Assembly: GCA_947629565.1 (NCBI GenBank)
Contig: CANREG010000021.1
Span: 1-45,109, forward strand
From: an uncultured Lachnospiraceae bacterium
GTDB taxonomy: Bacteria > Bacillota > Clostridia > Lachnospirales > Lachnospiraceae
Direction of reading: 5' to 3'
DNA: 45,109 nt
The notes beneath the pieces were generated by a model. That model was given only the letters and a program-made list of their open reading frames with translations. It had not been told where the DNA came from and did not search any database. The position numbers were made by a program, and so were the translations under genes. Below are positions 27,678 through 44,365 of this stretch, piece after piece (the stretch's first letter is position 1; each line of letters opens with the position of its first letter).

Positions 27678-28490
27678 ATGGTAGTACAACACAACATGCA
27701 AGCAGCAAATGCAGACAGAATGCTGGGCGGAAACGTTAAGGCAGTAGCTAAGTCTTCAGAGAAGTTATCTTCTGGTTACAAAGTTAACAGAGCAGCAGAT
27801 GATGCAGCCGGACTTTCTATTTCTGAGAAGATGCGTAATCAGATCAGAGGTATCAACCAGGCAGTTAGCAATGCTGAGGATGGTCAGTACTTAATCCAGA
27901 CAGCTGAAGGTAACATGAACGAGATTCATTCTATCTTACAGCGTATGGGTGAGTTGGCAACCAAGGCTGCCAATGATGTTAATGAGTCTGTTGACCGTCA
28001 ATCTATTCAGGATGAGATTGATCAGTTAGCTTCTGAGATTGACAGCATTGCTAAGAAAGCACAGTTCAACGGAACTTATCTGTTGAATGGTACATGTACT
28101 GATAAGTATTTGCAGGTTGGCGCTAACTCAGGCGAGAACATGAAGATTTCCATTGCTTCTATGAGCGCTTCTAAGATCGGTGTTGCTAGTCTTAATATGT
28201 CTAGTCATGCCAGCGCAAGTAACGCTATGAAGGCAGTTACTTCAGCAGTGAAAATGGTATCTGCAGCTCGTTCTAAGCTGGGTGCTGTCCAGAACCGTCT
28301 GGACTACACGATTAACAACCTGGAGAACTATTCTGAGAACTTAACCTCTGCTGAGTCTAATATCCGTGATACAGATATGGCTAAAGAGATGGTTAACTAC
28401 TCTAAGAATAATATCTTACAGCAGGCTGCACAGTCTATGCTTGCACAAGCTAACCAGTCTAACCAGGGCGTATTATCATTACTTCAGTAA
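27678..28490 (+). CDS. hag: Flagellin, short D0/D1-type
   Basis: 270 aa. CAAGGAGG precedes the ATG. N- and C-terminal D0/D1 helices are complete (SSGYKVNRAADDAAGLSISE; NIRDTDMAKEMVNYSKNNIL, QSMLAQANQSNQGVLSLLQ). The outer D2/D3 domains are missing and only about 50 residues lie between the arms, rich in Ser (MSASK, MSSHASASN), likely O-glycosylation sites. At residues 87-93 the TLR5-contact region reads LQRMGEL where Salmonella has LQRVREL. Codon use is biased differently from its neighbours (many T-ending codons), as expected for a very highly expressed gene. Monocistronic: own sigma-28 promoter and terminator. Confidence 0.97.
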   Translation: MVVQHNMQAANADRMLGGNVKAVAKSSEKLSSGYKVNRAADDAAGLSISEKMRNQIRGINQAVSNAEDGQYLIQTAEGNMNEIHSILQRMGELATKAANDVNESVDRQSIQDEIDQLASEIDSIAKKAQFNGTYLLNGTCTDKYLQVGANSGENMKISIASMSASKIGVASLNMSSHASASNAMKAVTSAVKMVSAARSKLGAVQNRLDYTINNLENYSENLTSAESNIRDTDMAKEMVNYSKNNILQQAAQSMLAQANQSNQGVLSLLQ

Positions 28491-28866: not shown

Positions 28867-29910
28867 ATGGGAAAGATTAGCGTGATTATACCTTGTTACA
28901 ATGTGGAAGCATATATTGACCGTTGCTTTATGTCGCTGCTTAATCAGACAATCGGTTTTGAACAGATGGAGCTGATCTTCATTAATGACGCTTCCACAGA
29001 CCATACGATGGACAAGCTTTTAGCATATGAAAAGCAGCATACGGAGAATGTGATTGTCATTAATTTTGAGGAGAACCGGAGGCAGGGCGCGGCAAGAAAT
29101 GTGGGGCTTCAATATGCGTCGTCACCCTATGTAGGATTTGTAGATGCAGACGACTGGGTGGAGCCGGATATGTTTGAGCGGATGGTAACAGCCATTGAGA
29201 CATATGACTGTGATTTTGTGGAGTGCCGTTGGGATTTTGCCAAAGATGCGGAGAGCCGGAGAACAACGGATCAATCCGGTGAAGACGGATATATGGATTT
29301 GTCTGATTCTGCAGTTCGGGAAACCTTTATTGGCACGAAGATTGCTTTGGTTATGGCATGGGATAAGATTTATAAAAAATCTTTCCTGGTAAATAATAAT
29401 ATTACTTTTCCGGAAGGGTTACGGCATGAAGACTTTTACTTCAGCTATCTTGTGTTTTTGTGTGCTAAATCCTGCTATTGCTTAGAAGATGTATTATATC
29501 ATTATTATATCAATCCGCATAGTACGGTCAGGCAAAAAGGGCAGCAGTATCATTTTGACCAGATGAAGGTAATGCTGATGTTCTTACAGGAGTGTATGGA
29601 CAGAAGGCTGTGGGATTTCTATAAAGTGATGGTAGAATGGATGTTTTTAGAGCAGTACTATGTATATATGCTGTGGAAGATTTTTGAACAGTTTCCGGAG
29701 CGGGCCTATGGGGTGTATCTGGAAATGAAACGGACGATACAGACGATGGCGCCGGATTACCGAACCAATCCGTATCGGAAATGGGAGTGTAACCGGTTTG
29801 ATGATGTAATGTTAAAGCTGTTGGATTATAATCTTGATGCAGAGCAGTTTGACCGGATGCGCATACAGTTTACGGAGTCTGTTCATCCTATAGACGCCCA
29901 GGAATTCTAA
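28867..29910 (+). CDS. GT2-family glycosyltransferase
   Basis: 347 aa. Residues 1-200 form a GT-A fold of family 2: ISVIIPCYNVEAYIDRC at the N-terminus, the first acidic site FINDASTD (D41) and the metal-binding DADD at 93-96, with GAARNVGL between. The C-terminal part (RHEDFYFSYLVFLCAK, YYINPHSTVR) is common in wall- and capsule-type GT2 enzymes. No membrane segment, so a cytoplasmic enzyme using a nucleotide sugar. AGGAGC precedes the ATG. Its stop shares one base with the next start (TAATG), so it is coupled to the Maf-type gene. Place in flagellin glycosylation is from context. Confidence 0.85.
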   Translation: MGKISVIIPCYNVEAYIDRCFMSLLNQTIGFEQMELIFINDASTDHTMDKLLAYEKQHTENVIVINFEENRRQGAARNVGLQYASSPYVGFVDADDWVEPDMFERMVTAIETYDCDFVECRWDFAKDAESRRTTDQSGEDGYMDLSDSAVRETFIGTKIALVMAWDKIYKKSFLVNNNITFPEGLRHEDFYFSYLVFLCAKSCYCLEDVLYHYYINPHSTVRQKGQQYHFDQMKVMLMFLQECMDRRLWDFYKVMVEWMFLEQYYVYMLWKIFEQFPERAYGVYLEMKRTIQTMAPDYRTNPYRKWECNRFDDVMLKLLDYNLDAEQFDRMRIQFTESVHPIDAQEF

Positions 29911-31784
29911 TGTGTTTAATGATATTGGAGAGTATGATGGAACAGGAAAAATATTTTGAAAAAAATATGATGGCTTTGAAAGAACGCGACGAAATGCTTT
30001 ATAAGGCAATTTGTGAGTATACGCCGGCGGAAGAAGGATGTTGTCCTCAAAAAGTATTGGCAAAAGATGGGACGGAAATCACGAAAATCACCAAGGATGG
30101 GAAGGAATGGTTCTTAAACAGCCAATATCGGCCTGTGCAGGAGGCCGTAACTTTTGTGGAGCAATATAACAAAGTTAGCGATTATTCTTTTATGGTTTTT
30201 CTGGGCTTGGGAAACGGCATAATAGCGAGACAGCTTCGTCAGAGTATGGGGGAGCATGTAAGGCTATGTTTTTATGAGCCCTCTGTTGAGATTTTCATGC
30301 ATGTAATTCAAAATTATGACATATCGGATTTGCTTGCTGCCGGAAATGTCTATATCATAGTCAATCGATTAAATAAAGAAAAGATGCAAATCGTTTTGGG
30401 AGCAAATATACAATTTGATACGTATCAAAACGCCATATATGACGCATTGCCCAAATATCGCCAATTATTTTTAGAAGACAACCAGTGGTTAGAAGATCTA
30501 TATCGGCAGGATGTAGTAAATATTATGGCATATATTCAAACGCAACAGGAATTTGGAAAATATTTTGTTATTAATGCGATTCAGAATATGAAATATTTAT
30601 TAAACTGCAATTACAGAGATGACTTCAAAGATATATTTCCAAAGGATATGCCTGCGGTTGTTGTGGCAGCAGGTCCATCTCTGGAAAAGAATATCGAAGC
30701 GCTTAAGAAAATGAAAGGAAAGGCGTTAATTATCGCCGTAGATACGGCGTTGCGGTACCTAACGGAGCAGGGCTTGAGGCCGGATTTGGCTATTACGGTA
30801 GATGCAAAAAAGCCAATTCATCTTTTTGATTCAGAGGATATCAGAAAGCTGATTTTGGTATCAGACTGTGCCGGTAATCATCAGGCGCTGGAATTGTTGT
30901 CCGGACAAAAATTGATTTTTAGTGGGGGGAATTATGTATACTACAAAAAAGTCTTTGCATTAAAAGGACGGGAATTTGGTTTCCTGAAAAATGGCGGATC
31001 TGTGGCAACCGTAGCATTTTCACTGTTGAGGGAATGGGGATTTCGGAGGATTGTATTAGTCGGACAGGATCTGGCTCTGGCTCCTGATAAAGTGCATGCG
31101 GGAAAAGATGATGTGGATTTATACAAATTGAATGGCAATAAAATTGCAATCGAAGGATATTATGGGGATACGGTATATACCACATGGGACTATAATGAAT
31201 ATCGGAGATGGTTTGAGAGAATGATTGAAGAAGAGAATTGCCCGGAGGTAATTAATGCTACAGAAGGAGGAGCAAAGATTAAAGGCGCAATACAGATGCC
31301 GCTTCAAAAAGTATTAGATACTTATTGTACGAGAGAGTTTGATTTTGAGAAAGCGATTGAGGAAGTACCGCCAACTTTTACAGAAGAGGATCGATCAAAG
31401 TTACTGGCTATGTGGGAGGAAAGTGTGAAAAATATTGAAAAACTTAAGAGAAATTTCAAGGAGGGAATCCACCTGATTGAAGAGGAAATCCGATTAATTT
31501 CCAGAGGGAGTTACACAAAAGGCAATATAAGAAATATACATAAAAAATTAAATAAGATTTTTGAGGAATGTGATTCTTATATGGAGATCCAGTTTATAGA
31601 TTCCATGGTGGCTGAAAAAGAAGAGAGAATCTTAGATGACATATATGAAATGGAAGAATCTAATGACGAGGAACACTGCCGATTGCTGGAGAAATTGAAA
31701 AAGTACTTATTATCTATGCAAGATGTAACAGATGAGGTAAAAGAATTAATTGTTTCTGTAATTAATCAGGTACAGGTGGGGTAA
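29910..31784 (+). CDS. DUF115/Maf-type motility accessory protein, first copy
   Basis: 624 aa from the ATG at 29910, which has AGGA at 6 nt; 29934 or 29937 after GGAGAG are alternatives. The DUF115 core lies near residues 245-420 with the markers VVAAGPSLEKN, AVDTALRYL, LAITVDAKKP, NGGSVATVAFSLL and VGQDLAL. DUF115 (also described as 6-hydroxymethylpterin pyrophosphokinase MptE-like) is shared with the Maf proteins of Campylobacter, Helicobacter, Aeromonas and Clostridium, which put nonulosonic acids or related sugars on flagellin in the cytoplasm. The C-terminal 120 residues are helical. A paralogue lies at 36020. No nonulosonate synthesis genes are in this window, so the sugar donor is open. 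Confidence 0.85.
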   Translation: MCLMILESMMEQEKYFEKNMMALKERDEMLYKAICEYTPAEEGCCPQKVLAKDGTEITKITKDGKEWFLNSQYRPVQEAVTFVEQYNKVSDYSFMVFLGLGNGIIARQLRQSMGEHVRLCFYEPSVEIFMHVIQNYDISDLLAAGNVYIIVNRLNKEKMQIVLGANIQFDTYQNAIYDALPKYRQLFLEDNQWLEDLYRQDVVNIMAYIQTQQEFGKYFVINAIQNMKYLLNCNYRDDFKDIFPKDMPAVVVAAGPSLEKNIEALKKMKGKALIIAVDTALRYLTEQGLRPDLAITVDAKKPIHLFDSEDIRKLILVSDCAGNHQALELLSGQKLIFSGGNYVYYKKVFALKGREFGFLKNGGSVATVAFSLLREWGFRRIVLVGQDLALAPDKVHAGKDDVDLYKLNGNKIAIEGYYGDTVYTTWDYNEYRRWFERMIEEENCPEVINATEGGAKIKGAIQMPLQKVLDTYCTREFDFEKAIEEVPPTFTEEDRSKLLAMWEESVKNIEKLKRNFKEGIHLIEEEIRLISRGSYTKGNIRNIHKKLNKIFEECDSYMEIQFIDSMVAEKEERILDDIYEMEESNDEEHCRLLEKLKKYLLSMQDVTDEVKELIVSVINQVQVG

Positions 31785-31832: not shown

Positions 31833-32987
31833 ATGCACACATTTAAGATATTGGTTATAAAAACAGAATCACAATATCATGCATTTGATATATTTGAGGA
31901 AGAACTAACTCATTATTGGAAACATATGGGGATGAAGGTTGATTATTTGCAGGGTATTGCGTCTATTGAAAAGGGCGATTGTGATTTTGTTTTTACTATG
32001 AATGGTGCGATATTGTCAAGTGGAGAAAATTACTCTGATATGCCAATCTATTCATACTATGTTGACCATCCATTGTGGCATGATTTAAGAATAAAAGAAT
32101 CTGACGTACAACACTGTATTGTAGTGGACAACGATTTTAAAGGATATATGGACAGGCACTATCAGTTATCACATGAGGCGGCTGTGGTAATGCAGGCAGG
32201 AGTAGAGGGCTCTAATAGCAGAAGACCTTTTATGGAACGCAAATATCCGGTTGTTTTTTGTGGGTCGTATAGAGATTATGTTGTTACATGGGATAGGATT
32301 AATGGAGAGAGAAAAAGTTTCTCTATATTCATGAAATATATGATTGAGAAAGCCTTAGCATGTCCATCTTTAACGATGGAACAAATGTATAATATAACCT
32401 TGGAGCATTTTAAATTTCCATTAGAAGGGGAGGAATATACAGAATTTTTATCTGCTTGCTAGGATGTAGAAGGATATCTTCGCGGATACTATAGAGCAAT
32501 GGTGGTTAAAGAGATTGTGGATGCAGGAATTCCTGTTGAGGTATACGGAGAAGGCTGGGAGCAGTTAAATTGTGAAAGAAAAGATTTATTACATTGTCAT
32601 CCATCGGTGGATTACCGCGAGATGTTGGATGTATTTGCAGACGCACAGATTGTTATTAATGTTATGCCTTGGGCGAAAGCGGGATTTCATGACAGAACTG
32701 CCTGCGGTATGTTAAACGGAGCGTTGGTGTTCAGTGACGAGACAAGCTATATGCGGGAAGAGCGCTTGGATGGCAATAAGTTGATTTTGTATACCTTAGA
32801 TGCAATACGGGAAGTTCCCGGGAAGATAGCATATTATTTGAAGCATTTGGATGAGGCAGAACGAATAGCCCAAAACGGATATCAGTGGGCAAAGGAAAAT
32901 CATACCTGGGAAAACAGAGCGCAGCAATTTATGGAAATATTTGAGCAATACCAAAGTAATGTAGATGAGAAAGCAGGGGGAGCATAA
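31833..32987 (+). pseudogene. CgeB-like glycosyltransferase interrupted by an in-frame TAG
   Basis: Two open parts, 31833-32459 and 32463-32987, are in the same frame and separated only by TAG at 32460-32462. The joined product would be about 384 residues. The first part resembles the N-terminal region of CgeB/DUF3880-type glycosyltransferases (YVDHPLWHDLRI). The second is a clear Glyco_trans_1_2-like end (GIPVEVYGEGWEQL, DAQIVINVMPWAKAGFHDR, NGYQWAKENHTWENR). The sequence after TAG keeps the family pattern at once (DVEGYLRGYYRAMVVKEI), so the lesion is a simple recent nonsense change. TAG is used as a normal stop elsewhere here (for example after flaG), so programmed recoding is unlikely. 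GAGGAAAAGGGAG precedes the ATG. A sequencing error cannot be excluded. Confidence 0.75.
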
Positions 32988-33031
32988 ATTATCTATGCTG
33001 TTTTGGATATAGTTTGTTTGTGGGGGGTACT

Positions 33032-34216
33032 ATGGATATTTTATTGTGCAAATTGGGTGTGTTATCAGAAATACAATGTCAAAAGGTCTTTGAAAAAATG
33101 GGTTATACAATCAGTGTGCTTGTTTATGATACAGAGGATTATGATGGAGATTTGAAATTTCTAGAAATTGTTGCAGAGGCGATGAAAGAAAAGCAATATG
33201 ATTTTGTGTTTTCTATTTATTTTTTACCAATTGTTTCTAAAGTTTGTAAAATATACCGTACAATTTATATTACATGGATATATGATTCTCCTGAGATTCA
33301 TTTATATGCAAAGGCTGTGCATAATGCAATAAATCGCATATTTTTGTTTGACAGAATACAATATGAACGGTTTCATAAAATGAGTCCGGAAACAATATTT
33401 TATATGCCATTGGCTACAGAGCCTATGACAGAAAAACAGATAGCCGAAGTAACATTACAGGACAGGCAGTTGTATGATCACGATATTTCCTTTGTAGGCA
33501 GTCTCTATAATGAAGATGACTGTAAGTATCATGTGTTATCCCGGTTGCCGGAATATTGGCGGGGATATATACAGGGAATTATAGAAGCCCAAATGAATGT
33601 GTATGGCTATAATTTTATTGCCGACAGCCTTACAGATAAAGCGGTATCGTCAATTAAAGAAGCAATCGGCTATGTATTAGTAGATGATTACCGTGTTGAA
33701 GACCGGGAAATTATTGCGGATATGTATATAGGGTTGATGTGTTCCGCTATGGAAAGACATAGAGTTTTGGAATTATTATCAAGGAATTACGATATAACGG
33801 TGTACAGCAAAAGTGATACATCGCAACTGCCCCGGATAATGAATAAGGGGATGGCAGATCCGCTTACAACGACTCCCAAGATATACCATTGCAGTAAAAT
33901 TAACTTGAATATTACGCTAAAGACTATTCAGTCAGGAATACCGTTGAGGGTATTTGATGTATTGGGCTGTAAAGGTTTTCTAATTACAAACTATCAGCCT
34001 GAGATTGCAGATTATTTTGAACCGGGAGTAGATTTAGTAATATATGATAGTATGGAAGATTTGCAGCGGAAGGTCGCCTATTATTTGGAACATGATGAGG
34101 AAAGAAAGCAAATTGCGGAGAATGGATATCGCAAGGTCTGCGAAAGCTTTACATATGATATTGCCTTGAAACAAATTTTGGATATGGCGGGATGTCCGGT
34201 TCCGGTTTCCGATTAA
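33032..34216 (+). CDS. CgeB-like (DUF3880 / family 1-type) glycosyltransferase
   Basis: 394 aa. The ATG at 33032 follows a run of six G that can serve as ribosome binding site; the frame is open upstream from a TTG at 33014. N-terminal half: Rossmann-like with TWIYDSPEIHLYAK and RIFLFDRIQYERF. C-terminal half: FVGSLYNE, then KINLNITLKTIQSGIPLRVFD and the end NGYRKVCESFTYDIALKQIL, as in CgeB and family 1-like enzymes. It is intact and belongs to the same broad family as the interrupted gene before it, so it may back it up. AT-richer than the flagellar genes. Confidence 0.8.
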   Translation: MDILLCKLGVLSEIQCQKVFEKMGYTISVLVYDTEDYDGDLKFLEIVAEAMKEKQYDFVFSIYFLPIVSKVCKIYRTIYITWIYDSPEIHLYAKAVHNAINRIFLFDRIQYERFHKMSPETIFYMPLATEPMTEKQIAEVTLQDRQLYDHDISFVGSLYNEDDCKYHVLSRLPEYWRGYIQGIIEAQMNVYGYNFIADSLTDKAVSSIKEAIGYVLVDDYRVEDREIIADMYIGLMCSAMERHRVLELLSRNYDITVYSKSDTSQLPRIMNKGMADPLTTTPKIYHCSKINLNITLKTIQSGIPLRVFDVLGCKGFLITNYQPEIADYFEPGVDLVIYDSMEDLQRKVAYYLEHDEERKQIAENGYRKVCESFTYDIALKQILDMAGCPVPVSD

Positions 34217-34271: not shown

Positions 34272-36020
34272 ATGGATAATGCCAAAGAGATATTGCAGTT
34301 AATACAGGAAGAAAAATGGGAGGAAGCCGCCTTAACTGTTACCAGAAAGATGGAAGCCGGGCGCTATGACGATACCATGGCAGTTCTGGCAGCTACAATC
34401 AATGAACATTTTGGAGATACGGAAACATTTCTTTTAAATGTAGAAACCGGACTTAAATATAATTATGAAAACTATGAGTTATATTTAATGCTTGGCAATT
34501 ATTATGCTATAGATAATTGTAACCAGGCATTTTTGTGTTATGAAAATGCGGAATATTATTGTAGAAAAAGCGGGAATCTGGAAGATTTAAATTATATCTG
34601 TCAGATAAAACAAAATTTATTAGACACAGGAAATGTTACAGTTGTTCCTTATTCCTTTGTAATACTATCCTATAATACTTTGGAGATGACAAAGGATTGT
34701 ATTGAAAGTATACGACAGACCTGTAATCCGGACTCTTATGAACTCATTGTTATTGATAATGCTTCTGAAGATGGAAGCGTTGACTGGCTCCGCAGACAGG
34801 ATGATATTCTGCTTATTGAAAATACAGAAAATGCAGGTTTTCCTGCGGGCTGTAATCAGGGCATTGCCGCTGCCAAACCGAATCATGACATTATGCTGCT
34901 TAACAGTGATACCATTATGATGCCTAATGCCATGTTTACCCTGCGTATGGGCTTATATGATTCCGAAAAAAATGGAGCAGCAGGGGCGGTATCGAATAAT
35001 GCGGATAATCAGCAGACAATCGACAGTGTGTTTAACGGGATAGAAGAATACAGACAGTTTGCTGCTAAGAATAACATTCACTGCCGGGCGGCATATGAAA
35101 AGAAGGTTTGGTTAATTGGATTTGCACTGCTGTTAAAACGCACAGCCTTAGAACGGGCAGGTCTCTTGGATGAACGGTTTACGCCGGGTAATTTCGAAGA
35201 CAATGATCTGGGCGTCCGGCTTATGCAAAAGGGGTTTTGCAATGTGCTGTGTTGGGACAGCTTTATCTATCACTGGGGCGGTAAAAGCTTTGATAAATTA
35301 AAGAGCCGGAAGCACTCCGATTTAATGCAGATTAATATGAGAAAATACGAAGAAAAATGGGGAATCAGTCCGGCCTATTATATGAATGCCAGAGAGGATT
35401 TGATGCAGTTTATTAAGCATGATAAGGAAAGCCGTATATCTATATTGGAGATTGGCTGCGGCGCCGGCGTTACTTTGGGAAGAATTGCGTACCAATATCC
35501 CAATGCGGATGTGCATGGAATAGAATCACTTAAAGAGGCGGCGGATTTGGGAGCGGTGAATTTTGACATTATTTATGGGAACATTGAGACAATGGATATT
35601 CCCTATGCAAAGGGCAGCTTTGACTATATTATTATGGGGAATGTCTTGGAAAATGCCGTAACACCGGAGTTTGTCCTTGATAAAATAAAACCTTATCTGA
35701 AACAGAATGGATATGTGATTTGCAGTATGCCGAATCTGATGAACGCTAAAGTAATCTATAATTTGTTGAAGGGCATTTCGCCGTACACAGAGAAAACGGT
35801 TACGGTTATACCGCCGTTAAGATACTTTACTTATCAGGAGATTCAGGCTTTGTTTGAGAAGACGGGATATCATATAGAGCTGATTCTGGGGCTGTCATTG
35901 GGCGGATATACAACGGATGATTATAAGGAGATATTCGATTATCTATTGTCTTTGGATGGAGTGGCGGAAAAGAATCAATTTGATATTTATCAATATAATA
36001 TAAGGCTTACTTTAAGTTAA
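34272..36020 (+). CDS. Fusion: TPR-like N-terminus, GT2 glycosyltransferase, SAM methyltransferase
   Basis: 582 aa. The ATG at 34272 follows AGGAGGA; an earlier in-frame ATG at 34236 lacks a site. Residues 1-115 are helical and TPR-like. About 123-380 are a GT2 domain (FVILSYNTLEMTKDCIESI, VIDNASEDGS, LLNSDTIMMPNA, GNFEDNDLGVRL). About 385-560 are a class I methyltransferase (ISILEIGCGAGVTLGRI, YAKGSFDYIIMGNVLENA). One protein could add a sugar and methylate it or its neighbour; methylated sugars are known on flagellins. The stop shares one base with the next start (TAATG), coupling it to the second Maf-type gene. Confidence 0.85.
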   Translation: MDNAKEILQLIQEEKWEEAALTVTRKMEAGRYDDTMAVLAATINEHFGDTETFLLNVETGLKYNYENYELYLMLGNYYAIDNCNQAFLCYENAEYYCRKSGNLEDLNYICQIKQNLLDTGNVTVVPYSFVILSYNTLEMTKDCIESIRQTCNPDSYELIVIDNASEDGSVDWLRRQDDILLIENTENAGFPAGCNQGIAAAKPNHDIMLLNSDTIMMPNAMFTLRMGLYDSEKNGAAGAVSNNADNQQTIDSVFNGIEEYRQFAAKNNIHCRAAYEKKVWLIGFALLLKRTALERAGLLDERFTPGNFEDNDLGVRLMQKGFCNVLCWDSFIYHWGGKSFDKLKSRKHSDLMQINMRKYEEKWGISPAYYMNAREDLMQFIKHDKESRISILEIGCGAGVTLGRIAYQYPNADVHGIESLKEAADLGAVNFDIIYGNIETMDIPYAKGSFDYIIMGNVLENAVTPEFVLDKIKPYLKQNGYVICSMPNLMNAKVIYNLLKGISPYTEKTVTVIPPLRYFTYQEIQALFEKTGYHIELILGLSLGGYTTDDYKEIFDYLLSLDGVAEKNQFDIYQYNIRLTLS

Positions 36021-37783
36021 TGGGGGATTTAATGGGTATATCGGTTAATACAATAAGCGCTAAAGACGGAACAGAGATTTTGGAAATCCAATCAAATGGC
36101 AAAGTGTATAGAATGAACAGTGCATATCGGCCCCATGCAGAAGCAGAGAAATTTGCCGTGCAATACCAAGGGTTGGAAGAAGGCAGTGTTCTTCTTGTGT
36201 TTGGATATGGAAATGGGATTTTCCCGAGGGCGTTAATGAAGGCGTGCAGCGGGCATATGAAGATTATTTTTTATGAACCGTCAACGGAGATATTACACTG
36301 CATAAAAAATATTGACGAGGAACTGCAGCAAATATTTAGTGAAAAAGGATATCTCGTTGCGCCGGAAAAACGGAAAGATGATAAGCGGGTTTATTTGACC
36401 GGTCAATTTCCAAAATTATTGGAACAGTTAGTTACCTATTCCAACTACAATAAAATTGTCTATACAGCATTGCCTAAATATCGGGATATCTTTCCTGAAG
36501 AATATAAGCATTTTCAAGAGTTAATCGCTTATCGTATAAATAAATTCAAATCCAATATAGCAACTGCCAAACGTATGGGACATGATGCTGTGGTGAATAA
36601 TATCCGAAATTTAAGGCGTATACCGGAAAGCTATTGCGGGGATAGTTTTGCCGGTATATTTCCTGAGGATATGCCGGCAGTTATTGTGTCAGCCGGACCC
36701 TCCCTTGAAAAAAATGTTCAGGACTTAAAACGGGCGAAAGGGAAAGCGCTGATTGTTTGTACGGATTCTGCCATTAAATATCTTTTGCGGCAGAATATAA
36801 TGCCGGATTTGCTGGTTACCGTAGATCCCTTAAAGCCTTTGTATCTCTTTGATGATGAACAGATAGATGGGATTCCCATTGTGGGGAGTCCGGATATGAA
36901 TTATAGAATTTTAGAAAAACTGCCACATTCTAAGGCGATATTTGCCAGTTCGGAAAATACTTATGTTCAGCAGCTTTACAGGGAAGCCGGACATAATGTT
37001 GAGCGTCTCGAAAGCGGCGGTTCTGTGGCTACTCTGGCATTTTCTCTGTGCAGGTATTGGGGATTTTCCCATATTATATTGGTTGGGCAGGATTTGGCTT
37101 TAGCTGACCGGCAAAGATATGCGGGACGAGGAGTATTGCCATATGATGAAGGGTGTGTTTTGTTAGAAGTGGAGGATATATACGGGGAGACGGCATATGC
37201 ACCAAAGGATTATTATTCGTATCTGAAATGGTTTGAGCAGGCCATAGCGGCGCACCCGGAGGTAAGGGTGATTGACGCCACAGAGGGCGGAGCGAAAATA
37301 GCCGGAACGGAAATAATGACTTTACAAGAAGCACTGTCAGAGTATGAAGAATCCGGTTTTGATTTCGGAGAATATATGAAGACGGTAAAACCAGCATTTT
37401 CTGATACAGAAAAAGAAGAGGTGAACCGGCAGATTCGGGAGAGCAGGAACCGACTTTCTCTGCTGTTGAAGAAATTGCAGGAAGGAATTGCGCTCTCCGA
37501 AAGGGGGTTGGCATTGTGTCGGCAGGGCGGAAACGGGCAGCAGTTATTTCAGCCGGTTGATGCGCAGATTCAGGAGATATGCGAGTATTACAATGGATTG
37601 GAGGAAAGCTTTTTCGTACAGCGTGAGATTGACGCAACCTGTCTGGAGGAATTTGCAGGGCTGTTTGAGGGAGAGAAGGCGGAGACAAAAGGGGAGCAGT
37701 ATGCGAATTTATTAAAGTATTTTAAGATTTTAAGGAATGTAGTGAGAGAAGTATACAATATGTGGGATGAACAGGATAAATAA
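36020..37783 (+). CDS. DUF115/Maf-type motility accessory protein, second copy
   Basis: 587 aa. It carries the same core as the copy at 29910: VIVSAGPSLEKN near residue 222, CTDSAIKYLL, LLVTVDPLKP, SGGSVATLAFSLC and VGQDLALADRQ. N-terminal segments are shared too (DGTEILEIQSNGKVYRMNSA here, DGTEITKITKDGKEW there). Two copies in one island suggest two acceptor sites or two sugars. The start is coupled to the fusion gene before it. It ends 104 bp before the ACP gene, and the gap holds a sigma-28-like promoter that starts within its last codons. Confidence 0.85.
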   Translation: MGDLMGISVNTISAKDGTEILEIQSNGKVYRMNSAYRPHAEAEKFAVQYQGLEEGSVLLVFGYGNGIFPRALMKACSGHMKIIFYEPSTEILHCIKNIDEELQQIFSEKGYLVAPEKRKDDKRVYLTGQFPKLLEQLVTYSNYNKIVYTALPKYRDIFPEEYKHFQELIAYRINKFKSNIATAKRMGHDAVVNNIRNLRRIPESYCGDSFAGIFPEDMPAVIVSAGPSLEKNVQDLKRAKGKALIVCTDSAIKYLLRQNIMPDLLVTVDPLKPLYLFDDEQIDGIPIVGSPDMNYRILEKLPHSKAIFASSENTYVQQLYREAGHNVERLESGGSVATLAFSLCRYWGFSHIILVGQDLALADRQRYAGRGVLPYDEGCVLLEVEDIYGETAYAPKDYYSYLKWFEQAIAAHPEVRVIDATEGGAKIAGTEIMTLQEALSEYEESGFDFGEYMKTVKPAFSDTEKEEVNRQIRESRNRLSLLLKKLQEGIALSERGLALCRQGGNGQQLFQPVDAQIQEICEYYNGLEESFFVQREIDATCLEEFAGLFEGEKAETKGEQYANLLKYFKILRNVVREVYNMWDEQDK

Positions 37784-37804
37784 CTTATGCAAGTATGCCG
37801 ATAT
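37777..37804 (+). promoter_or_regulatory. Sigma-28-like promoter ahead of the ACP/aldolase operon
   Basis: TAAA (37777-37780), 16 bp, GCCGATAT (37797-37804). Both boxes are perfect; the spacer is 16, as for the flaG promoter in this window. The ACP start is about 80 bp downstream. Confidence 0.8.
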
Positions 37805-37886
37805 ATGTAAAGAGCAGGTTGGATTTTATAGGGAAATATGATAGAATAAAAAGAAAAATTTGTTATTTAAATAAGGAGGAACCATA

Positions 37887-38123
37887 ATGACAAACAAGGA
37901 AAAATACATTGGAGCATTTGTGGAAGCATTAGAGATTGAAGAATCACAGGTGGAAGGATTGAAATATCAGGAGATTCCGGCCTGGGATTCTGTGGGACAT
38001 ATGTCTTTGGTGGCTTGTATTGAGGATGCCTTTGACATTATGATGGACACAGATGATATTATTGATTTCAGTTCCTATGAAAAGGGAATAGAGATTCTCA
38101 AAAAGTATGATATTGAAATATAA
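37887..38123 (+). CDS. Acyl carrier protein-like protein
   Basis: 78 aa, acidic. AAGGAGG precedes the ATG. The attachment site is AWDSVGHMSLV with Ser35 as probable 4'-phosphopantetheine site; DSV replaces the DSL of fatty-acid ACP, as often in specialised carriers. It is not in a fatty-acid operon. With the GNAT, aldolase and ThDP genes after it, it may carry an acyl group to be placed on an amino sugar, as ACPs do in the Pseudomonas syringae flagellin viosamine system. That comparison is by analogy. Confidence 0.85.
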   Translation: MTNKEKYIGAFVEALEIEESQVEGLKYQEIPAWDSVGHMSLVACIEDAFDIMMDTDDIIDFSSYEKGIEILKKYDIEI

Positions 38124-38154
38124 TTTATTACTGTAGAAGAAAGGAACCTGACTG

Positions 38155-38874
38155 ATGAAGGTGGTTGAAGCTGTTTGGGAAAAAAGGAATTTAGGGGTAG
38201 ATTCTGTGGAAATGGAGGTAGAACTGAATGATTCCTGCGACGAAGTGGCCAGAGTATTATCAGAAGTAAAAGGGCAGTATCTGGCGCTAAAGGTGCCGTC
38301 TACCCGGACAGATATTACATGGCTTGTCTCTCAGTTCGGATATATTTTTGTGGAGGATATGATGTTTTTAGAACATGACCTTCATCCGATTCAAAGAACG
38401 CCGCTGCAGCAGCGGTTGTATGATGCGGTAAAGGTAGAACCCATGCAGGAAGAGGATTTTCGTGTTTTATATGATGAGATTAAGCGGGGTTCTTTTACTT
38501 TTGACCGGATTAGCAACGATCCGTTTTTTACACAGGAGCAGGCAATTACCAGATTTTTGAATTGGCTCAATGACGAAAGGGAGAGAGGCGCTGAATTTCT
38601 GAAAGGGGTTATGAAGGGGGAAATGACAGGTTTTTTTACCATACGGGATTTAGGAGATGGCGTATATACATCGGCTTTGGGCGGAACTTTTATGAAATGG
38701 CGTAAAGGCGGGCTTGGAACTAACGTTCAAACGCCGGAAGAAGTGAAAAAACGGGGTGGTAAGAAATTGATTCTGGGCGTATCGACAACAAATATGATAC
38801 AGATTAGAGCCCTGATTCAAAATGGTTTTTTCCCGGTAAAGGTAAACCATGTATATGTGAAACATTGTGAGTAG
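38155..38874 (+). CDS. GNAT-like N-acyltransferase
   Basis: 239 aa. AAAGGA lies before the ATG. The C-terminal half (about 95-239) has the GNAT shape: FRVLYDEIKRGSFTFDRI, FLKGVMKGEMTGFFTIRD, then a GLGT loop in place of the usual acetyl-CoA loop, and the end LGVSTTNMIQIRALIQNGF, FFPVKVNHVYVKH. The N-terminal 90 residues are a second, weaker unit as in WecD-type sugar acetyltransferases. Being 31 bp after the ACP gene, it may take its acyl group from that carrier and put it on an amino sugar. Confidence 0.7.
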   Translation: MKVVEAVWEKRNLGVDSVEMEVELNDSCDEVARVLSEVKGQYLALKVPSTRTDITWLVSQFGYIFVEDMMFLEHDLHPIQRTPLQQRLYDAVKVEPMQEEDFRVLYDEIKRGSFTFDRISNDPFFTQEQAITRFLNWLNDERERGAEFLKGVMKGEMTGFFTIRDLGDGVYTSALGGTFMKWRKGGLGTNVQTPEEVKKRGGKKLILGVSTTNMIQIRALIQNGFFPVKVNHVYVKHCE

Positions 38875-38892
38875 AATTTATGGAGGGATAGC

Positions 38893-39714
38893 ATGATTGG
38901 CGGGATGAATATTTTTGATTGTACACTGAGAGAAGTGGGATATCAAACAGGTTGGTATTTTGATGTAGAATTTGCCAGAAATGTATATAATTTTGCACAG
39001 ACAAATGGAATTGATTATATTGAATTGGGATTTTTTCATAATGAGCAGGCAGATCCGGGCAGGGGAGATTTTCGATATTGCAGTACCCGGAACAGTGAGA
39101 TTATGGATGTGTTTCGACCGGTAAAGAATCATACAAAGATATCGGCAATGCGTGATATTCAAAGGCCGCTGTCAGATTTATTGCCGAGAGAAGAGTCTAT
39201 TATTGATACAATCCGGATATTGACCAGATCAAATGAGACAAAGTTAGATGTGCTGGAAGGATATGTGGATGAAGCCATGGCATTGGGGTATGAAGTGTTC
39301 GTGAACTTTACCAGTTCAGGCTATAATACGATGGATATGAATAAAGAGTTTGCAGAGTTTGCTGCTCGTAAAAAGGTACATGCTGTTGAGTTTGCGGATA
39401 CAGAAAGCGTAATGACGGAGGAATATGTGCGGAACACAATTCGAATCTGTCACGAAGCGGGAGTAAAATGCGGATGTCACCTTCATGATAAACGGGGTAC
39501 GGCAGATTACCTGGCGGAGATTGCAATAGAAGAAAAAGCGGATTATATGGATGTAACGCATATAGGGCTTGGCGGGAAATGGAGAGATGGCAACCTGACT
39601 ATGGAATATCTGTTGCGCAGATTTAATAAAAACCCAGGGTATGAGGCAACTATAATCAAAAATGAGTTGATAGAACAGATTATAAAGTATCATGAATTTA
39701 CAGCGGCAGTATGA
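38893..39714 (+). CDS. HMGL-like (DRE-TIM) aldolase/lyase
   Basis: 273 aa, GGAGGG before the ATG. The family signature is at residues 9-16 (DCTLREVG, variant of DxTLRDG) and the metal ligands are H196 and H198 in CHLHDKRG. This is the fold of 4-hydroxy-2-oxovalerate aldolase, HMG-CoA lyase and isopropylmalate synthase; the short length and single domain fit an aldolase-like member. Such genes are found beside acetolactate-synthase-like genes in surface-sugar clusters, with unknown reaction. It ends 42 bp before the probable start of the ThDP gene. Confidence 0.8.
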   Translation: MIGGMNIFDCTLREVGYQTGWYFDVEFARNVYNFAQTNGIDYIELGFFHNEQADPGRGDFRYCSTRNSEIMDVFRPVKNHTKISAMRDIQRPLSDLLPREESIIDTIRILTRSNETKLDVLEGYVDEAMALGYEVFVNFTSSGYNTMDMNKEFAEFAARKKVHAVEFADTESVMTEEYVRNTIRICHEAGVKCGCHLHDKRGTADYLAEIAIEEKADYMDVTHIGLGGKWRDGNLTMEYLLRRFNKNPGYEATIIKNELIEQIIKYHEFTAAV

Positions 39715-39755
39715 TATATACGTCAGAGTCAGAATCAATAGAAGGGTGGATAATT

Positions 39756-41555
39756 ATGCTGAGAGTAGCAGATTATATAATGTCAAAAATTGAACAGGAA
39801 AAAGTGGGACACGTTTTTTATGTTCCGGGGGGACAATGCGTTTACTTAACTGATGCGCTGAGAAGGAATGATAATTTAAAAGGCATAGCTGTCCATCATG
39901 AGCAATCTGCGGCCATGGCTGCTCTTTCTTATTCGTTATACAGTGAAAATCTGGGCGCCTGCCTTGTGACTACCGGTTGCGCAGGAACGAATACAATGAC
40001 GGGTCTGCTGCATGCCTGGCAGGACAGTATACCTTGTGTTTTTGTATCCGGACAGCAAAATGTGGATCAGACGATAGTTTCTTCAGGGCTGCCTTTGAGA
40101 CAGGTTGGCGTGCAAGAGGCCAATATAGTAGAATTAGTAACGCCAATTACCAAATACGCACACATGCTAGACCGGGCAGAAGATGTTTGCTATCATGTTG
40201 AGAAAGCCATATACATGGCAAAAGAAGGGCGGCAGGGACCGGTTTGGCTGGATGTTCCTCTAAATATACAAAATGCAATGATAGACGAAGAGCAATTAAA
40301 GCATTTTGTGCCTGAGCCCGCAACATTACCGGAAGCGTCATCAGAAGATCTGGCTTATGTGAAATCCTGTCTGCAGGAAGCAAAGAGACCTGTCATTTTG
40401 GCAGGTCAGGGGATTAGAAGTGCAAAGGCCGGGGCGTTGCTGAATGAGTTGGCGTTGAAATATCGAATTCCGGTTGTTTTTACCAGACTTTCTATTGACT
40501 TGATGGATTGGAGAAATGAAATGAATTTTGGCGTAGTGGGAGCGGCAGGCGCTAATCGGGAAGCCAATTTTATTGTTCAAAATTCAGATTTGGTTTTAAG
40601 TATAGGCAGTCGTTTATCCATTGATACGACAGGTCCGCAGAGAGGAGACTTTGCCAGAGAGGCGAAGATTTTAGTTGTGGATATAGATGCGGTAGAACAT
40701 GCCAAGCAGGGGGTAAAGATTGACCGATTTATCCTTTCTGATGCAGGAATGTTTATGAAACAGCTGTTGGAGACGGAATCAGAACAGACACAGGAGAACT
40801 GGATTGAAAAGTGTAAGCATTGGAAAACCCTTTTTAAACAGGATTATCAAGGGAAAGAAGATAACTTAATAAATTTAAAATATTTTATCAGAAAGCTATC
40901 CGGCAAGTTTCCGGAAAATACAGTTGTTGTATCGGATGCAGGAACCACTGGCTGCGCCACGCCTGCAAATTGTTACTTCAAGGCGTCTGATCGCAGCATA
41001 CATTCTTTTGCTCAGGGGGAGATGGGCTTTGCTCTTCCCGGGGCTGTAGGCGTTGCGTGTTTGTGTGAGGGAATGAGCGTAGTGATTACAGGGGACGGTT
41101 CCTTTATGATGAATCTGCAGGAAATACAGACGGTGGTAAGAAATCAGTTTAATATGAAGATTGTGATTATTAATAATAATGGATATTCCGGCGTCCGTCA
41201 TGGGCAGAAAGCGCATTTCCGGGGGAAAACTATTGGAACGGACCCATCTAACGGTATAGATTTTCCCGATTATGGGAAAATTGCCGAAGCTTTTGGACTC
41301 CCGTATATTAAAATCGATAATGTGGCAGATATAGATAAGGGAATAGACGAAGTGTTGAATGTGGAAGGTCCTTGTATGTGTGAAGTGTTCTGCGATCCAG
41401 ACCAGTTTGATTTGCATAATGCTTTAGTGATGTATGGAAAGAGAAAATTCGGATTCCGTCCGATAGAGGATCAGTCGCCATTTCTTGACCGGGATGTTTT
41501 CTTCGAGGAGATGATTGTGGAACCCATGGAAACCAGTTATGGGAAACCAATGTAA
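39756..41555 (+). CDS. Acetolactate-synthase-like ThDP-dependent enzyme
   Basis: 599 aa. The ATG at 39756 is preferred: AGAAGGGTGG lies upstream and the N-terminus then fits the family (LRVADYIMSKIEQEKVGHVFYVPGGQ). The catalytic Glu is E49 in HHEQSAAMAA, and the ThDP/Mg motif is GDGS at 446-449 ending in IINNNG. All three domains of the acetolactate synthase family are present. No regulatory small subunit gene is near, and the context is a glycan island, so amino-acid synthesis is unlikely. In sugar pathways such enzymes add two-carbon units to keto sugars (YerE in yersiniose synthesis) or make an acyl precursor. Alternative: decarboxylase. Confidence 0.82.
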   Translation: MLRVADYIMSKIEQEKVGHVFYVPGGQCVYLTDALRRNDNLKGIAVHHEQSAAMAALSYSLYSENLGACLVTTGCAGTNTMTGLLHAWQDSIPCVFVSGQQNVDQTIVSSGLPLRQVGVQEANIVELVTPITKYAHMLDRAEDVCYHVEKAIYMAKEGRQGPVWLDVPLNIQNAMIDEEQLKHFVPEPATLPEASSEDLAYVKSCLQEAKRPVILAGQGIRSAKAGALLNELALKYRIPVVFTRLSIDLMDWRNEMNFGVVGAAGANREANFIVQNSDLVLSIGSRLSIDTTGPQRGDFAREAKILVVDIDAVEHAKQGVKIDRFILSDAGMFMKQLLETESEQTQENWIEKCKHWKTLFKQDYQGKEDNLINLKYFIRKLSGKFPENTVVVSDAGTTGCATPANCYFKASDRSIHSFAQGEMGFALPGAVGVACLCEGMSVVITGDGSFMMNLQEIQTVVRNQFNMKIVIINNNGYSGVRHGQKAHFRGKTIGTDPSNGIDFPDYGKIAEAFGLPYIKIDNVADIDKGIDEVLNVEGPCMCEVFCDPDQFDLHNALVMYGKRKFGFRPIEDQSPFLDRDVFFEEMIVEPMETSYGKPM

Positions 41556-41600
41556 GGAAGTGAATTTTAAAATTATGATATTTATGGAGGTTGAAAAGGT

Positions 41601-42910
41601 ATGAAAATAGGTGTTCTATCTTATGTGGGGGGGTATTGGGATTAGATGGAAAAGACTGGCAAAATCTTGGGGATTATTACCAAAGTTATGCAATGCGGCT
41701 TATTTTAGAGGAACTTGATTTAGGTCAACAGATAGAAGAAATATCAAAATATGAGCTGTCAACATATGATGGAGAGTATATTTTTTTATTAATGAATTGT
41801 TATGATTCTTTAACGAATCAATTGCGACTTGTAAAAAGTTCTTATCCTATTTCAGAAAAAATTATACCTTGTTATGTTAGCTATCATTTGCAGTCAGAAT
41901 TGTCATCAGATGTTGCAGCATATTTAAAAAAGTATGAGCCAATAGGATGTCGAGATGAATTTACGATGAATAATATGCGCAGGAAAGGGATTAAGGCATA
42001 TTTGACTGGTTGTGTCACAGCTCTGCTTCCTCGGACAGCGCTGGTTCCAAGTATAAAAGAAGGCGGTAAAATCATATTTGTAGACACACCAGATTCATTG
42101 GAACCATTTATTCCAAAAGAATGGAAGGGAAACATAGAATATTATTCTGCAAAATATAGTATTGTTAGGACAGATGGAAGTGCCAGCTTATCTCCAAGCG
42201 AATGTAAAACTGTATCCACATATGCGATGAAACAATTAGAATATTATCGAACGCAAGCTGCAATTATTGTAACATCTCGGCTTCATGTGGCTTCGCCCTG
42301 CATGGCTATGGGGATTCCTGTTATTTTGACATGTGATAATATTGATTGCCGATATACATGGATTGATAAATTATTACCAGTATATTCACGAGAAAATTTT
42401 AAAGATATTGATTGGCATCCGGCACCTGTAGAATACGAAAAGGAAAAGCAGTTTTTAAAAGAAAAATTGGGAATTATAATAAAAAAAGCATGGGAACAGG
42501 CAAAGGACATATATGCGGTAAGTGAATTTTGGGAAAATCGAGAAAAGGTGCCAATACATATGACATTGTATCGTTATATTGCCAATGTTCCAATGCAGCA
42601 TAATCAAGAAATAAAATATATTATTTGGGGAGTCCCATCGCCTGCTGCTGAGATAAAACAGGCGATAGATATGTATTTTCCTAATTGGAAGATGTCACAC
42701 GTAATTGATTTAAATTGCGAGGGGTATTTTGAAGGGCGAACAATTGAAAAACCTGAAATTGTAGATTATATTAAGGATGATGATATTTATATTATTGTGC
42801 CGGAATCAGCATATGAACCGGTTGGGAAATTGTTAAGAGAAAAAAATAAAAGATATATTTTAATAAACACTAAACAGTGTCAGTGGTCAGATAATATATC
42901 AGAGATTTAG
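41601..42910 (+). pseudogene. Polysaccharide pyruvyltransferase-like gene, frameshifted at a G7 tract
   Basis: The ATG at 41601 has GGAGG 10 bases upstream and gives MKIGVLSYVGG, the typical start of WcaK/CsaB-like pyruvyltransferase-family proteins, but meets TAG at 41643 just after seven G (41627-41633). One more G would join it to the long frame that runs to 42910. That long frame has family marks: NLGDYYQSYAM, PIGCRDEFT, YLTGCVTALL and TSRLHVASPCMAMGIPVI. The only start in the long frame, a TTG at 41591, touches the GGAGG and is not credible. The last 100 residues are an extra Rossmann-like unit (YIIWGVPSPAAEIK). It is either off by phase variation, decayed, or a homopolymer error. Confidence 0.7.
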
Positions 42911-44356: not shown

Positions 44357-44365
44357 CCCCCCCCC
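44357..44365 (-). repeat. G9 homopolymer at the ribosome binding site of the cytidylyltransferase fusion gene
   Basis: Nine C on the plus strand (G on the minus strand). Its first G is the last base of the aminotransferase TAG stop, and it ends 6 nt before the ATG of the fusion gene. Length change would alter the strength and spacing of the binding site but not either reading frame. Confidence 0.8.

What the first reader, a model, noticed from the sequence alone, without database searches (positions are those of the whole stretch)
37777..41555. Sigma-28-like promoter drives an ACP-GNAT-aldolase-ThDP operon inside the glycosylation island
A perfect TAAA and GCCGATAT pair precedes four genes whose families (carrier protein, N-acyltransferase, HMGL-like aldolase, acetolactate-synthase-like enzyme) would fit synthesis and transfer of an unusual acyl or branched group onto an amino sugar. 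Control by the flagellin sigma factor ties this chemistry to the filament. I know of no described pathway with exactly this set, so it is the best candidate here for a new system: an ACP-carried modification of a flagellin glycan.
Basis: partly seen in the sequence, partly recalled or inferred. Interest (0 to 1): 0.72.

Follow-up and report, generated by a model that had tools for sequence, protein, structure and literature searches.

The report
Detached piece of flagellin-glycan acyl pathway
Four neighbouring genes in a gut bacterium's flagellum-decorating region look like one part of a larger, scattered pathway that builds and attaches an unusual carbon group to sugars, probably those of the flagellum, and they are probably switched on mainly by an ordinary promoter rather than by the flagellum-specific one first proposed.

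Summary
A perfect TAAA-N16-GCCGATAT site lies at 37777-37804 (0.02 expected), before an ACP, a WecD-like acyltransferase, an HMGL-type aldolase and a ThDP lyase, downstream of flagellin and two Maf proteins.

The interpretation changes. None of 20 other ACP relatives examined has that site; a TTGnnn-N16/17-TAGAAT promoter before the ACP is shared by the window and the three closest ACPs found. The four genes are no self-contained set. In Lachnospiraceae UBA3273 the four families share a cluster with AMP ligase, LuxE, LuxC, SDRs and split transketolase; in this genome those partners lie on two other contigs, one also with PseI and PseF.

The ThDP enzyme is nearer JanthE (YerE-like, C-branching) than acetolactate synthase; 13 of 18 aldolase loci carry RfbH. 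ACP/LuxE/LuxC cassettes in flagellin islands are already described; the aldolase plus YerE-like lyase in one was not found in print. New variant of a known kind; chemistry inferred. Against: UBA3273's cluster shares no contig with flagellin, and a near ThDP relative lies beside RfbF/G/H.

The parts
37777..37804 (+). sigma-28-like site TAAA-N16-GCCGATAT
   Evidence: not found in the 200 nt upstream of 20 other homologous ACPs
37819..37847 (+). sigma-A-type promoter TTGGAT-N17-TAGAAT with TG before the second hexamer; 8 of 12 consensus positions
   Evidence: same form before the three closest ACPs found, G476, G154 and G344; 5-10 of 1000 shuffles per sequence; below the 9-of-12 limit of the scan
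37887..38123 (+). acyl carrier protein (78 aa), presumed phosphopantetheine site Ser35 (WDSVGHM)
   Evidence: single match of this type in the own genome
38155..38874 (+). GNAT-type, WecD-like N-acyltransferase (239 aa), assignment weak
   Evidence: predicted model too poor to use
38893..39714 (+). HMGL-type TIM-barrel aldolase (273 aa) with invariant D9, R13, H196, H198
39756..41555 (+). ThDP-dependent carboligase, JanthE/YerE-like (599 aa)
41591..42910 (+). polysaccharide pyruvyl transferase-like frame, 35 nt downstream; the likely ATG at 41601 is in another frame, changing at a run of seven G (41627-41633)
36020..37783 (+). Maf-type (MptE-like) protein upstream; no terminator-like site before the ACP
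29910..31784 (+). second Maf-type (MptE-like) protein
27678..28490 (+). flagellin

Best explanation
The operon supplies the carrier and the carbon-carbon bond-forming enzymes of a larger pathway whose other enzymes lie on other contigs, and whose product decorates a flagellin glycan. Shown: the gene families, their place in a flagellin/Maf island, the partner cassette elsewhere in the same genome, and the same parts in one cluster in a relative. Inferred: (1) an AMP ligase (contig C56) charges the ACP; (2) LuxE and LuxC turn an acyl group into an aldehyde, which transketolase and short-chain dehydrogenases extend and reduce; (3) the aldolase makes a hydroxylated or extended 2-oxo acid; (4) the YerE-like lyase decarboxylates that acid and adds the resulting acyl anion to a ketone or aldehyde of the pathway, giving a branched alcohol; (5) the WecD-like enzyme moves the finished acyl group to the amine of a 4-amino sugar or a pseudaminic-type acid, which Maf proteins attach to flagellin. 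Transcription probably comes mainly from the sigma-A-type promoter and read-through from the maf gene, with the sigma-28-like site as a possible local addition.
For: L056 (UBA3273) has ACP 83%, aldolase 73%, ThDP 63% and acyltransferase 41% identical, with AMP ligase, 2 LuxE, 2 LuxC, 2 SDR, split transketolase, an EamA pair, FkbM and DegT. Own genome: C56 has SDR, TktN, TktC, LuxE, LuxC, SDR, a LuxE-LuxC fusion, AMP ligase, PseF and PseI (both over cut-offs) and FkbM; C2 has an EamA pair, FkbM, a second acyltransferase and DegT. One match to this ACP in the genome. 21 ACP loci: AMP ligase 17, LuxE 16, FabG-type SDR 15, LuxC 14, TktN 10, flagellin 5, PseI 5, the window and L056 included. ThDP tree: window, L056 and L144 (G472) form a clade (100/99), all three from ACP-linked settings; L144 has flagellin, ThDP, NeuB, ACP, AMP ligase and LuxE in one stretch. 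ThDP is nearer JanthE (368 bits, residues 2-588) than acetolactate synthase (243 bits, 4-546). No RfbG or RfbH over cut-off in the own genome.
Against: No substrate, product or transcript has been observed. The contigs are not shown to be linked, and the genome is 85% complete. The UBA3273 cluster lies on a contig (C65) without a flagellin match; its four flagellin matches are on other contigs. G302 has the ACP cassette (L098) and no flagellin match at all. The C2 acyltransferase, not the window's, is the closer match to L056's (60% against 41%). L144 lacks the aldolase, is a long branch in the tree, and its genome has RfbH over cut-off on the same contig, about 17 kb from the ThDP gene. The nearest non-ACP ThDP relative (G312, 45%) lies beside RfbF, RfbG and RfbH in a flagellin island. 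18 of 21 ACP loci show no such ThDP lyase. A second ACP/ligase set near pseB (C25) could serve the flagellin glycan instead.
Confidence: 0.52

Rival explanations
1. Aldolase and ThDP enzyme make a C4-branched CDP-3,6-dideoxyhexose of the yersiniose/erwiniose/caryophyllose kind. The CDP-4-keto sugar comes from RfbF/G/H genes in the missing part of the assembly, and the ACP and acyltransferase are merely neighbours.
For: 13 of 18 loci with this aldolase carry RfbH; flagellin lies in or near 5 of 18. The nearest non-ACP ThDP relative (G312, 45%) is next to RfbF/G/H and flagellin, and G472 has RfbH on the contig of its ACP-linked ThDP. ErwE takes 4-hydroxy-2-oxo acids (PMC12247030, passages).
Against: No RfbG or RfbH over cut-off in the own genome, and no RfbH over cut-off in the L056 genome. 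Window ThDP is 31-36% identical to ten RfbH-linked partners of this aldolase and falls in a clade with ACP-linked enzymes.
Confidence: 0.19
2. The pathway serves a capsule or cell-wall polysaccharide, and the flagellin island is only its landing site.
For: In 13 of 18 aldolase loci and 16 of 21 ACP loci no flagellin was seen in or near the stretch read; UBA3273 has its flagellin matches on other contigs and G302 has none.
Against: Flagellin or Maf genes beside the ACP, aldolase or ThDP gene recur (L144, L170, L177, L182, L058, L059, L062, L071); PseI and PseF lie in the own C56 cassette.
Confidence: 0.15
3. One reading: a self-contained sigma-28-driven ACP-GNAT-aldolase-ThDP operon is a complete new flagellin-glycan modification system.
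For: Perfect site, 0.02 expected; the N16 spacing also occurs at flaG; flagellin island context.
Against: No loading enzyme among the four; in L056 the four families come with many more genes; none of 20 other ACP upstream regions has the site, while the TAGAAT promoter is shared with the three closest.
Confidence: 0.09
4. Ordinary branched-chain amino acid or 2-oxo acid metabolism (acetolactate synthase plus isopropylmalate-synthase-like enzyme).
For: Automatic family hits name acetolactate synthase and homocitrate/isopropylmalate synthase.
Against: The hits shown fall far below curated cut-offs; ThDP is nearest JanthE; the aldolase has only the barrel (273 aa); the context is glycosylation.
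Confidence: 0.03

Closest known systems
Aeromonas group II polar flagellin glycosylation islands (PMC7874193, passages read)
   Same: ACP, 3-oxoacyl-ACP reductase, AMP-dependent synthetase, LuxE and LuxC with pse genes and a Maf protein
   Different: The terms aldolase, thiamine and ilvB do not occur in its main text; here the cassette is split over contigs
Enterobacteriaceae flagellin modification islands (PMC4875605, passages read)
   Same: Acp, LuxE, LuxC, CaiC ligase, FabG in flagellin islands
   Different: The terms aldolase, thiamine and acetolactate do not occur in its main text
YerE-like ThDP lyases: YerE, ErwE, MMAR_2332, JanthE (PMC12247030, PMC12188165, passages read)
   Same: Sequence nearest JanthE over nearly the full length, C-terminal tail included; paired with an aldolase able in principle to supply hydroxy-2-oxo acids
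   Different: No CDP-4-keto sugar pathway found in this genome; GDG motif where JanthE has CDG; ACP-linked context. YerE itself was not compared
WecD, dTDP-4-amino-4,6-dideoxygalactose acyltransferase
   Same: Weak similarity over most of the length (NCBIfam PRK10975 19.4 bits; PDB 2fs5 17.8 bits with the family profile)
   Different: Far below the curated cut-off of 219; acyl donor here proposed to be ACP-bound
Bacteroides putative aldolase 3dxi and 4-hydroxy-2-oxovalerate aldolase DmpG (1nvm)
   Same: TIM barrel and aligned His-x-His; its role in metal binding is recalled
   Different: 16-24% identity; no C-terminal domain; substrate unknown

Membership tests
sigma-28 (SigD/FliA) promoter | TAAA, 14-16 nt, GCCGATAT (consensus partly recalled) | tested here: met
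   37777-37804, spacer 16
sigma-28 (SigD/FliA) promoter | conserved upstream of the homologous gene | tested here: not met
   1 of 21 ACP upstream regions, the window alone; contexts differ, so local use is not excluded
sigma-28 (SigD/FliA) promoter | transcript start that depends on sigma-28 | not testable with these tools
   needs RNA
YerE-like C-branching lyase | closer to a YerE-like enzyme than to acetolactate synthases | tested here: met
   JanthE 368 bits over 2-588; acetolactate synthase 243 bits over 4-546; YerE itself not compared
YerE-like C-branching lyase | catalytic Glu and ThDP motif | tested here: met
   H48 E49 Q50 and G446 D447 G448 invariant in 12 of 12; roles recalled
YerE-like C-branching lyase | gene context of CDP-3,6-dideoxy-4-ketohexose synthesis (RfbF/G/H) | tested here: not met
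   no RfbG or RfbH over cut-off in an 85% complete genome; RfbF not searched
YerE-like C-branching lyase | carboligation to a ketone | not testable with these tools
   needs enzyme assay
HMGL-like (PF00682) aldolase | Pfam score over gathering threshold | tested here: met
   37.1 bits, cut-off 29
HMGL-like (PF00682) aldolase | TIM barrel with conserved Asp, Arg, HxH | tested here: met
   D9, R13, H196, H198 in 17 of 17; model pLDDT 92.4, best PDB matches of this superfamily
acyl carrier protein | DSx motif with phosphopantetheine Ser | tested here: met
   WDSVGHM in 3 of 3 aligned
acyl carrier protein | Pfam PP-binding over cut-off | tested here: not met
   14.5 bits, cut-off 20.8
GNAT N-acyltransferase | recognised as GNAT by sequence or fold | tested here: inconclusive
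   0 Pfam families for the window protein; 2 of 8 family members hit PF00583, best E 0.004; 12 of 19 weak PDB hits of the family profile are named acetyltransferases, 2 are an unrelated protein; model too poor
ACP-AMP ligase-LuxE-LuxC-FabG flagellin-island cassette | the genes together in one island with pse genes | tested here: inconclusive
   all in the genome, with PseI and PseF, but over two contigs

The most novel reading that the evidence does not exclude
A YerE-like lyase has changed its acceptor: instead of branching a CDP-4-keto sugar it adds the aldolase-made acyl unit to an aldehyde or ketone produced by the ACP/LuxE/LuxC pathway. A flagellin-glycan acyl group would then be built by aldol and thiamine chemistry (aldolase, transketolase, lyase) rather than by fatty-acid-type Claisen condensation. 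The aldolase is shared with little change between the two pathway types while the ThDP partner differs.
Probability: 0.2. Interest if true: 0.72.

Novelty: new variant of a known kind. Interest (0 to 1): 0.5.

Why it matters
Flagellin glycans of gut Lachnospiraceae are scarcely known, yet flagellin is an immune signal of these bacteria (general knowledge). A carrier-protein pathway with an aldolase and a C-branching thiamine enzyme would predict a sugar or acyl group not yet seen on flagellin. It would also extend YerE-like lyases, of use for making tertiary alcohols, from surface sugars such as those of LPS to flagella and perhaps to new acceptors. The scattered layout warns against reading such pathways from a single operon.

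Tried and rejected
Rejected: acetolactate synthase or leucine pathway reading (hits shown far below cut-offs; JanthE nearer). Rejected as sole account: sigma-28 control. Kept only as a rival: hidden RfbF/G/H. The aldolase-like hits of 24-31% identity in relatives (mostly 320-350 aa, some longer), and the one on own contig C4 (L055), were set aside as more distant. L095, L096, L097 and L099 added little. Paper searches; only four papers were opened, for passages. One search listed one unrelated paper, none, none with the trihydroxyhexanoyl term. A resemblance to a polyhydroxyacyl nonulosonic acid on Treponema denticola flagellin is recalled from memory and comes from no call.

Left out of counts: the ACP count covers the top 20 of 33 places plus the UBA3273 locus, with stretches of at most about 20 kb (the window whole), some cut by contig ends; presence was judged by bit-score limits of my own. 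Beyond the stretches, flagellin was sought only in the genomes of L056, L059 and L071, the own genome and G302.

Full report
Observation. The sigma-28-like site is at 37777-37804: TAAA, 16 nt, GCCGATAT. Shuffles of the window give 0.02 such matches on average. In the whole genome the form ending in GCCGATA has 20 matches against 7 for the reversed pattern. 14 of the 20 lie inside mechanical reading frames and 6 between genes. Of the 5 intergenic sites other than the window ACP's, two precede flaG (spacer 16) and flgD (spacer 15), and three precede proteins without a Pfam hit. The flagellin gene has TAAA-N15-TCCGATAT. So the site is real and of a form found at flagellar genes here, although its TAAA box overlaps the stop of the upstream maf-type gene.

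The second promoter. A sequence TTGGAT-N17-TAGAAT with TG before the second hexamer lies at 37819-37847, between the sigma-28-like site and the ACP. It scores 8 of 12 and so was not listed by the consensus scan, whose limit is 9. The three most similar ACPs found (G154 86%, G476 83%, G344 79% identical) have TTGnnn-N16/17-TAGAAT at 64-82 nt before the start; the window has it at 68 nt. Each upstream stretch gives such a match in 5 to 10 of 1000 shuffles. These relatives are not independent samples, and most of the less similar ACPs lack it, some being inside operons. None of the 20 other ACP upstream regions has the sigma-28-like form. No terminator-like site was found between the maf gene and the ACP, so read-through is also possible. 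The simplest reading is that this ACP type often carries its own housekeeping promoter and that the sigma-28-like site is local.

The genes. The ACP is divergent (PF00550 at 14.5 bits, below 20.8) but has WDSVGHM in the three aligned homologues. The acyltransferase has no Pfam hit; its family profile weakly matches acetyltransferases, including WecD over residues 43-236. The aldolase is a clear PF00682 member. A confident model (pLDDT 92.4) is nearest to a Bacteroides putative aldolase, homocitrate synthase, DmpG-type aldolases and isopropylmalate synthase. Asp, Arg and His-x-His positions are invariant in 17 of 17, but these data do not decide between a pyruvate aldolase and an acetyl-CoA condensing enzyme. 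The ThDP protein is nearest JanthE (8rph) among solved structures, aligned over residues 2-588 at 368 bits, against 243 bits and residues 4-546 for acetolactate synthase. JanthE is described as YerE-like and accepts 4-hydroxy-2-oxovalerate with benzaldehyde (PMC12188165, passages). The reviewed enzyme ErwE prefers 4-hydroxy-2-oxo acids (PMC12247030, passages). That an aldolase of this class supplies such acids is an inference.

Two settings of one aldolase. I compared 18 distinct loci that encode an aldolase of at least 53% identity (window, G113, and 16). A ThDP enzyme lies in 16 of 18 and is the next gene in 13; RfbH-like proteins lie in 13 of 18. In L064 the RfbF, RfbG and RfbH matches exceed curated cut-offs. 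This is the CDP-3,6-dideoxyhexose context of YerE-like enzymes. Flagellin lies in or near 5 of 18 (window, L058, L059, L062, and L071 at about 12 kb). The window and L056 are the two loci of the 18 with the ACP. The aldolase tree keeps the window near both kinds (L056 at 0.51, RfbH-linked rows from 0.67). The ThDP tree places window, L056 and L144 in a clade (100/99), with G312 and G278 next, far from the RfbH-linked partners of this aldolase. G312's enzyme (45% identical) is itself beside RfbF, RfbG and RfbH in a flagellin island, and G472, the source of L144, has RfbH over cut-off on the same contig. So the aldolase has been kept while the ThDP partner differs, and the ACP-linked clade seems to have arisen near sugar-branching enzymes. 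L144 is a long branch and its place is less sure.

The missing partners. L056 (Lachnospiraceae UBA3273) holds ACP, AMP ligase, LuxE, LuxC, SDR, two transketolase halves, a second LuxE, LuxC and SDR, aldolase, ThDP, an EamA pair, acyltransferase, FkbM and DegT. In the window's own genome, contig C56 has SDR, TktN, TktC, LuxE, LuxC, SDR, a LuxE-LuxC fusion, AMP ligase, PseF, a metallo-beta-lactamase-fold protein, PseI and FkbM; no ACP was recognised there. Contig C2 has an EamA pair, FkbM, a second acyltransferase and DegT. PseB lies on C25, where a Maf-type protein, a DegT aminotransferase and another ACP/ligase set also lie. The window ACP is the only match of its type. RfbG and RfbH searches of the own genome gave nothing over cut-off, whereas the four other genomes tested with the aldolase (G008, G010, G022, G113) have RfbG over cut-off. 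G008 and G010 have only partial LuxE matches and G022 none; G113 has one long match, without the rest of the cassette in the stretch read.

The ACP family. 32 of 397 genomes of the family carry it. In 21 loci examined, AMP ligase is present in 17, LuxE in 16, FabG-type SDR in 15, LuxC in 14, TktN in 10, flagellin in 5, PseI in 5, ThDP lyase in 3 and the aldolase in 2 (the window and L056 are among the 21). L144 (G472) has flagellin, DegT, glycosyltransferase, GFO/IDH, hexapeptide protein, FabA-like, ThDP, NeuB, ACP, SDR pieces, FabA-like, nitroreductase, AMP ligase, thioesterase and LuxE on one strand. This ties an ACP-linked ThDP enzyme to a flagellin island independently of the window. Against it, the UBA3273 cluster shares no contig with that genome's flagellin matches, and G302 has the ACP cassette but no flagellin match, so the cassette is not confined to flagella.

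What is known. ACP, AMP synthetase, LuxE, LuxC and reductase genes with pse genes are reported for group II islands of 98 Aeromonas strains (PMC7874193), where a liposugar component was suggested, and such genes for 71 to 80 enterobacterial strains by gene (PMC4875605; passages). The terms aldolase and thiamine occur in neither main text, nor ilvB in the first or acetolactate in the second.

Verdict. A real and informative site and operon, with a revised meaning: one dispersed part of an ACP-dependent pathway, most likely for a flagellin glycan, with its own sigma-A-type promoter. Kinship with YerE-like enzymes is supported by sequence but the usual sugar genes were not found, so it probably works like YerE, perhaps on another acceptor. 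The product is unknown.

Noticed in passing
window 41601-41645: The pyruvyl-transferase-like gene has a likely ATG with a ribosome site at 41601 whose frame soon stops, just after a run of seven G (41627-41633); the long open frame is another one. This may be a phase-variable switch or an assembly error. Runs of 7 or more G or C are not enriched in the window (2 against a mean of 3.1 in mononucleotide shuffles).
   Followed up: partly
window 44357-44365: A run of nine C (G on the coding strand) at the very end of a HisC-like aminotransferase gene on the minus strand, next to a cytidylyltransferase-oxidoreductase fusion gene.
   Followed up: no
L117 (own contig C25), 748-4402 and 7084-11988: A second carrier system: FabG-type SDR, ACP synthase III, an 81-aa protein with a DSFD motif, AMP ligase, near a DegT aminotransferase, PseB and a Maf-type protein.
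   Followed up: partly
L093 (own contig C56), 6601-8892: LuxE and LuxC fused in one 763-aa protein.
   Followed up: no
L146, L147, L149, L150, L151: Other genomes of the family pair a longer, about 530-aa HMGL-like protein with a YerE-like ThDP enzyme; RfbG and RfbF matches lie in L147, L149 and L150, and RfbH in L147 and L149: perhaps a widespread source of long-branched dideoxy sugars.
   Followed up: no
L066 10001-11522, L067 5928-7442: The same aldolase family sits directly before a PseF-like cytidylyltransferase with no ThDP enzyme in the stored stretch, which hints at another use of its product.
   Followed up: no
L057, L069, L070: The aldolase, ThDP and RfbH set occurs in records labelled Chitinispirillia, Neomarinimicrobiota and Akkermansia, suggesting transfer between phyla or mixed bins.
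   Followed up: no
window 32499-34216: A short 162-aa glycosyltransferase-like frame is followed at once by a DUF3880 glycosyltransferase whose TTG start sits by a run of six G.
   Followed up: no
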